A DNA stretch of 33,955 nucleotides from an uncultured Methanobrevibacter sp. (lineage in GTDB: Archaea; Methanobacteriota; Methanobacteria; Methanobacteriales; Methanobacteriaceae). The stretch spans positions 1-33,955 of the forward strand of contig CANQZY010000003.1 in assembly GCA_947628455.1 (NCBI GenBank), written 5' to 3'. A program made the position numbers and the translations under genes. Positions 4,780-6,761 of the stretch are shown piece after piece (the first letter of the stretch is position 1; the number at the start of each line of letters is the position of its first letter). The notes beneath the pieces were generated by a model that did not search any database, was not told where the DNA came from, and worked only from the letters and a program-made list of their open reading frames with translations.

Positions 4780-6761
4780 TTAAGCTGTTCTTTTCCAATA
4801 AAATTTATCGCAATATTCATCTAACATGTCATTATAATCAATAGCTCTGACGCTATTGTAGTATATTCGTGCATCAGTATTCATCGAAGTTCCTCCGCCT
4901 TTTATGATTACATCATTAGAATGCAAGTTCCCATCAGCATCAAGGCTCACCATCAAAGCACCATTCCCGCCATCTGAACCAATAAATTCATTCGCAAATT
5001 CTAAACCATTAAAACTTTTTACGCCAAATTTGTTGTATTTTAACGTACACAAAGATACTAATCCATCCGAAATACTTTTTTTAGTGACCATATTTAGTTT
5101 AAATTCGATCGTATGACCTGCTCGTATAACTGTAAGTCGATCACAAGTGGCGTCTTCTTCTGTTAAGTATTGTGCTATATCAGAAGTTGAAGTTACACCT
5201 TCATGAAACGCTTTAAATTCTTTATCAATTAACTGCCATGTTCCCCCCCCACTTTGGAAGATGGATTTTGATTTGAATCAGTGATTAATATTGAACCAAT
5301 TGGATACAACACATCATAATCCCATAAATAATCTCTCAAATCTATTTCATGTTCACCATTCTCATCATTCATTAAAATTGTCCCGTTAACAGTTAAATCT
5401 GATTTGCCAAGCGAAATTGTATCTATTCCTCTAGTCAAAACTTTACTAGTATAAATCAAGTCAGAATTATTGACTAGATCGTTAACGTACAATTCAAATA
5501 AATAACTATTTCTATAATCAGTTATTTCTCCTAAACTCAAATTTTCTATTTTAAAAGTATTATTCTTTTCATCTATAATAATATTTTCTGAAGATATCGA
5601 AAAAAATTCTGACATGGGAACATTTTCTTTATTTTCTTTATAACGATATTTAATATTTAAATTGTTTTTTATACCATCACTGTTAAATTGTCCAATAAAA
5701 ATACTCCCTGAAACGTTTAAAATTATTTCTCCAGAAGTTGTCGTTTTTCTCTTAAAATCAATACTTTTTATTGATGGAACTATATAATTAATACATCTAT
5801 TTGTTAAATCAATAGAAATATTTGTTGAAATATTTCTGCTATCTGTAACAACTATACTAAATTTTGCTGAACCAATTTTTTGAAAAATTCCATCAGATGT
5901 TTGTATTGTTTGACCATCATCACAAAGAATTTTTACAGACTTAATTGAAGCATAATTTTTTGGAACTGCTTCAACTACAAAATGAGGTTCAGATAAATTT
6001 AAAATTGGCACATCAAAATTATCACCTTGATATTCAATAGCTTTTTGATTAGTTTCTTTTACAGTATATTGAACGTCTGGTTTGTTTAAATTTTGATTTA
6101 CTGTTGCAACAATATTTGTATTTGATGTACCTATATTTGTATTTGAATTATAAGTTTCACATATCAATTTTATTGTTATCGACGAAGAATTAGGAATTAC
6201 TTGATAAATGTCTTTTGGTATTGTAAACCCAACGACAGAATTACTTGTTTTTTCAACAATTGTTCCGGAAAGATTACTGCATGACCATTTTATTGTGTGT
6301 TTGAAAGACGATGATTTACTTGAAATTGTGATTATTATACCTTCTTCAATATTTCCTGAAGTTGCAACTATAGAACTAGCTCTTGGAATCGTTGGCAAAG
6401 TAACTGATCCACTCGTTTTTCCGTTTATTGGAGAAAAGGTTGTTGAAATTTGTCCTGATAAAGAAACACTTTTAGATCCGTCGCTTGAATGAGTAATATT
6501 GTAGCTTATTTCATTTAAAGTCAAAGTGGCATTTGCTGAAATTGATGTAGGAATGCTTTTAGAATTACCTCCGTTAATCAAAGCTGAACCACTACTCCAA
6601 TTTGCAGAATAACCATTTAATGATCTAAATCTTAAACGAACACTTATATTAGAAGTATTTTTAGATATATTTTGTGAATTTAGTTTTGCCTCTAATATTA
6701 AAAGGTAGTTTGTACTTATAGTTTTTCTTGAAACTTCTTGATATGTGTTATTTAGCGTCAT
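4780..6761 (-). CDS. Tail fibre/minor structural protein (DUF859-like), interrupted by a G8 frameshift at 5243-5250
   Basis: ORF 5229-6761 stops just after GGGGGGGG; the -1 frame stays open (TWQLIDKEFKAFHEG...) into ORF 4780-5091; length 1982 nt, +1 nt = 661 codons. Confidence 0.75.

What the first reader, a model, noticed from the sequence alone, without database searches (positions are those of the whole stretch)
4780..6761. G8 homopolymer splits the tail-fibre gene; one extra G restores a 660-aa protein
On the minus strand the 510-aa ORF ends AAA GTG GGG GGG GAA CAT GGC AGT TAA. Reading one base back gives ...GG ACA TGG CAG TTA ATT GAT AAA GAA TTT, open for about 53 codons directly into ORF 4780-5091. 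The spliced reading, VGG(G)TWQLIDKEF, resembles the common ...NPSxxFGGTWExI motif of Firmicutes tail proteins, so the halves belong together. The tract is 8 G in an AT-rich phage, suggesting phase variation (8/9 G), transcriptional slippage or programmed -1 frameshifting of a likely receptor-binding protein. An assembly indel or a decayed gene is the mundane alternative.
Basis: partly seen in the sequence, partly recalled or inferred. Interest (0 to 1): 0.85.

Follow-up and report, generated by a model that had tools for sequence, protein, structure and literature searches.

The report
Poly-G switch in phage receptor-binding protein
A run of eight Gs in a gut-bacterial prophage puts the receptor-binding tip of its tail protein out of frame, and related prophages carry similar G runs next to the same kind of tip genes, which suggests a length-changing on/off switch for what the phage can attach to.

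Summary
On the minus strand a G8 run (5250-5243) ends the tail ORF at 510 aa; the -1 frame continues for 154 codons, and nine Gs would give a 660-aa protein. The two halves belong together: three database proteins carry both in one frame, every residue invariant in the family is kept, and codon usage changes frame at the tract. The downstream half models well (pLDDT 91) and resembles receptor-binding heads of phages TP901-1, p2 and PSA.

Two things change the context. The window does not belong to its bin: the bin is a methanogen-type archaeon, while the contig is a bacterial prophage inserted in tRNA-Arg beside a GerMN gene 76% identical to one in an uncultured Bacilli order. In that order poly-G tracts are common, and four other prophages have G8-G11 runs in short leader ORFs directly before small tail-tip cassettes. 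In four leaders, exactly one of three tract phases lets the leader end just inside the cassette.

Best reading: slipped-strand phase variation of a receptor-binding head, assembled OFF. Recoding lacks support. Read-level length variation, the decisive test, could not be run.

The parts
5229..6761 (-). Tail protein N-terminal part as assembled (510 aa; DUF859 / PHROG 372); its last codons (EHGS, stop) follow the G run
   Evidence: ORF; PF05895 E=3.2e-30; phrog_372 tail protein E=5.2e-55
5243..5250 (-). G8 homopolymer, the proposed switch; lies in the codons of the conserved GGTW hinge motif
   Evidence: sequence; frame outcome by length; expected 0.017 per window
4780..5247 (-). C-terminal receptor-binding-head domain in the -1 frame (GTWQLIDKEF...CDKFYWKRTA, 154 codons and stop)
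   Evidence: family alignment A3 with all 15 invariant positions kept; 102 homologues; AF2 pLDDT 91; Foldseek to TP901-1, p2, PSA receptor-binding proteins
4780..5091 (-).
4247..4762 (-). Next tail-tip gene (171 aa); its head MIEKIVIAFRKILIDSSSISHNKQLLKDIL resembles the heads of poly-G-preceded cassettes in G218 (L115); no G run before it here
6758..8527 (-). Tail-associated protein (Prophage_tail, PHROG 3558)
8527..9186 (-). Distal tail protein Dit (PHROG 33)
31830..32936 (+). Tyrosine integrase beside the right attachment site
   Evidence: PF00589 and PF14657
33013..33089 (-). tRNA-Arg(TCT), the integration target
   Evidence: ARAGORN
1058..1119 (+). Left attachment repeat: imperfect copy of the tRNA 3' end and the sequence after it (87% over 62 bp to about 32973-33031)
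   Evidence: blastn
33135..33860 (-). Host flank: GerMN-domain gene, 76% identical to G380 of the Bacilli order

Best explanation
The G8 tract is a contingency locus inside a siphophage tail-tip gene. Polymerase slippage while the prophage or phage DNA is copied changes the tract by single Gs. In two of three lengths translation stops a few codons after the tract and the phage makes only the roughly 510-aa tail-tip protein. In the third (6 or 9 G) a receptor-binding head domain is fused to its end. A lysogen population would therefore release particles with and without this head, hedging between receptors or between adhesion and dispersal. Shown: the anatomy, the conserved coding frame, the receptor-head-like fold, and G runs at comparable places in related prophages. 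Inferred: that the length really varies, that both forms are assembled into virions, and that attachment changes.
For: Halves fused in frame in homologues P0002, P0003, P0019 and in loci L046, L047. All 15 invariant positions of the C-terminal family are kept in the window. Codon model: frame 0 +0.218 per codon before the tract; frame 2 +0.188 from tract to ATG and +0.157 after. C-terminal domain pLDDT 91, Foldseek probability about 1.00 to TP901-1 ORF49, p2 and PSA gp15 receptor-binding proteins. True host group found through the GerMN flank and tRNA-Arg site. In that host family 52 of 99 genomes hold G9 runs; in G167 they lie in TTGACA..G8-10..TATAAT spacers and at starts of membrane-protein-like ORFs. 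Tail-tip loci of G167 (two tracts), G218 (two), G405 (two) and G357 (one) have G8-G11 in leader ORFs before tip cassettes. In four of these leaders one of three phases ends 4, 14, 7 or 11 nt inside the cassette, the other two 18-71 nt before it.
Against: No reads were available, so no length variation is shown. G8 is shorter than the G9-G11 of most related tracts and should slip less. No close homologue of this gene with another tract length was found: the viral contig scans did not complete, and only one contig in the protein database holds this protein. The related tracts sit in separate leader ORFs, not at this codon. G6, not G9, gives the two-glycine motif seen in 75 of 87 relatives; only one of the 87 has three glycines. 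The nearest host relative G380 has few G9 runs.
Confidence: 0.74

Rival explanations
1. A one-off loss-of-function allele: a single slip in a G run removed the head and this lineage simply lacks it, as laboratory phage lambda PaPa lost its side tail fibres through a frameshift in stf.
For: The lambda case is documented (PMC9659904), and stf frameshifts in short homonucleotide runs were repeatedly selected in a biofilm-like setting (PMC2762979). Only one sequence of this allele exists here.
Against: The downstream 154 codons show no decay: invariant residues, codon bias and a confident fold are intact. A run of GGG codons is not what this phage uses otherwise. Recurrent G runs before comparable modules in four other prophages argue for a maintained switch.
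Confidence: 0.13
2. Recoding from a fixed G8 template: -1 ribosomal frameshifting on G GGG GGG, or transcriptional slippage on the G run, makes a fixed fraction of full-length 660-aa protein beside the 510-aa form.
For: The run allows re-pairing in the -1 frame, and the zero-frame stop follows closely. Tail genes of phages are a known home of such frameshifts (own knowledge).
Against: No structure downstream beyond chance (z +0.55 and +0.28; pseudoknots not modelled). Homologous loci have no slippery run at the junction. In related prophages the G runs differ in length (8 to 11) and lie in leaders where a length switch, not a fixed ratio, fits.
Confidence: 0.08
3. Assembly or sequencing artefact: the true tract is 9 (or 6) G in all cells.
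For: Homopolymers are where consensus errors gather; the window lies in a fragmented, partly mixed bin.
Against: Short-read assemblies (147 contigs suggest one; inference) rarely misread eight bases. Even so, a true G9 run would still be an unusual tract at the same hinge and would leave the main argument standing.
Confidence: 0.05

Closest known systems
Poly-G contingency loci of Campylobacter (phase-variable surface-glycan genes that control phage sensitivity; PMC10877375)
   Same: G tract in a surface-interaction gene; single-G changes toggle a full or truncated product; several tracts per genome
   Different: There the bacterium varies the phage receptor; here a prophage would vary its own receptor-binding protein. 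The host is an uncultured Bacilli order
Phage lambda stf, Ur-lambda versus PaPa (PMC9659904; PMC2762979)
   Same: A frameshift splits a tail-fibre gene into two ORFs and removes the distal fibre; slips in short runs are selectable
   Different: A laboratory loss in a gene without a long homopolymer; not described as a maintained switch
Mu / P1 invertible tail-fibre segments and BPP-1 diversity-generating retroelement (own knowledge)
   Same: The phage diversifies its receptor-binding end within a clone
   Different: Those need a recombinase or a reverse transcriptase; none is needed here, only a homopolymer, and the switch is presence or absence of a head
Receptor-binding heads of siphophages TP901-1 (ORF49), p2 and PSA (gp15)
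   Same: Fold of the C-terminal domain (Foldseek probability about 1.00, TM up to 0.63 by target length)
   Different: 8-14% identity over the aligned part; here the head is joined to a DUF859 tail protein through the GGTW motif

Membership tests
Homopolymer contingency locus (slipped-strand phase variation) | Long homopolymer tract inside or just before the gene | tested here: met
   G8; 0.017 such runs expected per window
Homopolymer contingency locus (slipped-strand phase variation) | One-base changes switch between full-length and truncated product, with an intact downstream frame | tested here: met
   G9 or G6 give 660/659 aa; G7, G8, G10 give 510-512 aa; downstream frame conserved
Homopolymer contingency locus (slipped-strand phase variation) | Tract length differs among cells, strains or reads | not testable with these tools
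   no reads, no close homologue of the same gene; viral contig scans failed
Homopolymer contingency locus (slipped-strand phase variation) | Such tracts recur at comparable loci in relatives | tested here: met
   seven G8-G11 tracts before tail-tip genes in four other prophages of the order, but in leaders, not at the same codon; four loci reached the same way lack them
Programmed -1 ribosomal frameshift | Slippery heptamer X XXY YYZ in the zero frame, with a nearby zero-frame stop | tested here: met
   G GGG GGG, stop within a few codons
Programmed -1 ribosomal frameshift | Stimulatory downstream structure | tested here: not met
   z +0.55 and +0.28 against shuffles; pseudoknots not modelled
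Programmed -1 ribosomal frameshift | Slippery site and split ORF conserved in homologues | tested here: not met
   L046, L047 and P0002, P0003, P0019 are fused in frame; the two loci have no G run at the junction
DUF859 / PHROG 372 siphophage tail protein | Profile match over the N-terminal region | tested here: met
   PF05895 E=3.2e-30; phrog_372 E=5.2e-55
Siphophage receptor-binding head domain | Head fold of TP901-1 / p2 receptor-binding proteins | tested here: met
   Foldseek probability about 1.00, TM up to 0.63 by target length, but E 0.007-0.09 and 8-16% identity, with some animal-virus fibre heads in the same list
Siphophage receptor-binding head domain | Binds a host surface receptor | not testable with these tools
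   needs binding or adsorption assays

The most novel reading that the evidence does not exclude
Prophages of an uncultured order of gut Bacilli (the one holding Candidatus Onthousia) carry arrays of small receptor-binding tip genes, each with its own poly-G switch: in a fused gene as here, or in a leader peptide whose reading phase decides whether ribosomes are delivered to the tip gene. One lysogen could then release particles with different combinations of tips, without recombinases or retroelements.
Probability: 0.5. Interest if true: 0.8.

Novelty: new variant of a known kind. Interest (0 to 1): 0.63.

Why it matters
Bacterial poly-G phase variation of phage receptors is well known; the mirror image, a phage varying its own receptor-binding head by a homopolymer, was not found in the open-access papers searched. 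If true it is a very cheap way to hedge host range, it would be hidden in assemblies as a split tail gene, and it can be tested at once in public reads. The finding also points to an uncultured Bacilli order with many poly-G tracts in promoter spacers and surface-protein genes, and to a leader-coupled form of the switch that deserves a reporter assay.

Tried and rejected
Host-wide poly-G in the window's own bin was first taken as support. It was dropped when the bin proved archaeal and the window a misbinned bacterial prophage. Searching the genus and class of the bin for the tail module found nothing outside the window's own bin, which fits misbinning. Named phages gave one 26% match. Viral contig scans gave no answer in five tries. 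RNA structure for frameshifting: none. Decay of the downstream half: rejected by alignment, codon model and fold. The intact paralogue on contig C35 (...FLGGTWTSWG...) has both halves in one frame. The G9 at 20356-20364 was considered as a second switch; it lies in a GC-rich palindromic patch between HNH and small-terminase genes, where a cos site is expected (inference), so it was not counted. Campylobacter phage and prophage tail papers were checked for a poly-G tail fibre; the passages read describe none.

Full report
WHAT IS THERE. On the minus strand the tail ORF 6761-5229 (510 aa) reads ...AAA GTG GGG GGG GAA CAT GGC AGT TAA; the run is exactly eight G at 5250-5243. Re-reading one G gives GTWQLIDKEF... 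open for 154 codons to the stop at 4780, through the 103-aa ORF that starts at 5091. G9 gives 660 aa and G6 659 aa; G7, G8 and G10 give 510-512 aa. In this 26.6% GC window 0.017 G8/C8 runs are expected, and GGG is 12 of 297 glycine codons in the phage genes counted.

THE TWO HALVES ARE ONE PROTEIN. The first part matches PHROG 372 (residues 13-434) and DUF859. The joined protein finds full-length relatives P0002, P0003 and P0019 (about 30-38% identity) that run through the junction as LGGTWE.(I/F)DKEF and end C(D/N)KFYWKR.A, as the window does. The Gp10_C profile, cut off at the tract in the 510-aa ORF (15.6 bits, below its cut-off of 27), passes when the halves are joined (30.1 bits). The C-terminal domain alone has 102 hits, nearly all over its whole length. 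In an alignment of ten members the window keeps all 15 invariant positions. A codon model from other phage genes favours frame 0 before the tract and frame 2 immediately after it, including the 52 codons before the internal ATG. So the second half is intact and its natural beginning is at the tract, not at 5091.

WHAT THE SECOND HALF IS. AlphaFold2 on that alignment gives pLDDT 91.3 and pTM 0.81. Foldseek matches in the PDB include the receptor-binding heads of lactococcal phages TP901-1 and p2 and Listeria phage PSA, probability about 1.00 but E 0.007-0.09 and 8-16% identity. Animal-virus fibre heads in the same list have lower TM-scores by query length. Matches among viral predictions include tail and receptor-binding proteins. 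The fold assignment is reasonable; receptor binding itself is inferred.

WHOSE PHAGE IT IS. The assembly that holds the window is archaeal: contigs C1 and C2 encode archaeal-type Pus10 and archaeal AlaRS. That it is a Methanobacteriales-type methanogen is my inference from kinship sizes and gene content. The window's tetranucleotide profile correlates only about 0.56-0.61 with the large contigs C1, C2 and C4 of the bin, while most other large contigs correlate about 0.83-0.91 with them. Its right flank is a GerMN gene (PF10646) that occurs in 343 of 386 genomes of the order of G167, best 76% in G380; the tRNA-Arg and GerMN stretch matches G380 over 982 bp at 77%. The order includes the genome of Candidatus Onthousia faecavium (G169). 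The tRNA-Arg(TCT) lies at 33013-33089 beside an integrase, and an imperfect copy of its 3' end and the following bases lies at 1058-1119. The contig is thus a bacterial chromosome piece with a prophage of about 32 kb, misbinned.

POLY-G IN THE TRUE HOST GROUP. Of 99 genomes of the family of G380, 52 contain G9 runs, from one to more than a hundred positions. In G167 many lie between TTGACA and TATAAT boxes or a few codons into membrane-protein-like ORFs, the classical places for phase variation. G380 itself has few.

POLY-G AT TAIL TIPS OF OTHER PROPHAGES. Searches with the C-terminal domain or the Tal protein, neither of which selects for G runs, reached eight tail loci in this order. Four have G8-G11 runs just before small tail-tip genes: G167 (G9, G10), G218 (G9, G8), G405 (G9, G9) and G357 (G11); four do not (G169, G211, G365, G549). 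With about nine G9 positions per genome of roughly 1.1 Mb, far less than one such tract would be expected in these few tens of kilobases (rough estimate). In G167 and G357 the G run follows a PHROG 372 protein, the same place as in the window, but in a separate leader ORF (MSKNKHLF-GGG.., VKKSKLQVNK-GGG..). For four leaders (two in G167, one in G405, one in G357) exactly one of the three phases lets the leader end 4, 14, 7 or 11 nt inside the cassette; the other two phases end 18-71 nt short of it. Three of the four are assembled in the coupling phase and one is not. RNA of four leader regions scored z -2.95, -4.42, -1.53 and -4.22 against shuffles, so most carry a stable hairpin. The two G218 leaders do not show the simple coupling pattern, and the second G405 tract is cut by the contig end. 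Translational coupling switched by tract length is the likely mechanism there; this is inference.

MECHANISM. The same logic in one gene explains the window: the tract lies at the hinge between the tail-tip body and its head, and single-G slippage adds or removes the head. Recoding from a G8 template is possible but lacks a stimulator and is not conserved. A one-off loss, as in lambda PaPa stf (PMC9659904), is the main rival; stf frameshifts in short runs were selected in biofilm-like agar (PMC2762979), which also shows why a phage might profit from a head-less state.

NOVELTY. Poly-G contingency loci and phage tail switching by other means are known. I found no paper describing a homopolymer-switched phage receptor-binding protein, but the library is open-access only. 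I rate it a new variant of a known kind. The missing proof is length variation in reads.

Noticed in passing
window 1-33955 (whole contig C3 of G000): The contig is a bacterial prophage with flanks misbinned into an archaeal (methanogen-type) assembly; contigs C35 and C14 also look closer in composition to the Bacilli genome G167 than to the bin.
   Followed up: yes
G000 contigs C30 (5622-5630, 7963-7973), C48 (6395-6403), C11, C54, C92, C102, C111: The archaeal bin itself holds many G9-G12 runs, two near the start of family-2-like glycosyltransferase genes and one splitting a glycosyltransferase-like gene; others follow a shared ATATCC-G10 motif, several at contig ends. By composition C30, C48 and C11 look archaeal; poly-G phase variation in a gut methanogen would be notable.
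   Followed up: partly
window 20356-20364 (-): G9 run in a GC-rich palindromic patch (gcgcgcgtgcgcgatGGGGGGGGGtacac) between the HNH gene and the small terminase gene; probably part of the cos site.
   Followed up: partly
L102-L113 (genome G167): Many poly-G runs sit in the spacer of TTGACA/TATAAT promoters or a few codons into paralogous membrane-protein-like genes: a large set of apparent contingency loci in a 1.2-Mb uncultured Bacilli genome.
   Followed up: partly
L115 5852-5860 (-) (genome G218): A leader ORF with G9 is followed by a terminator-like hairpin plus T run before the next tail-tip cassette; only one tract phase would be translated across the hairpin, as in a phase-variable attenuator.
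   Followed up: partly
window 106-1050 (+): LicD-family gene at the left end, just outside the left attachment repeat; probably a host surface-modification gene.
   Followed up: no
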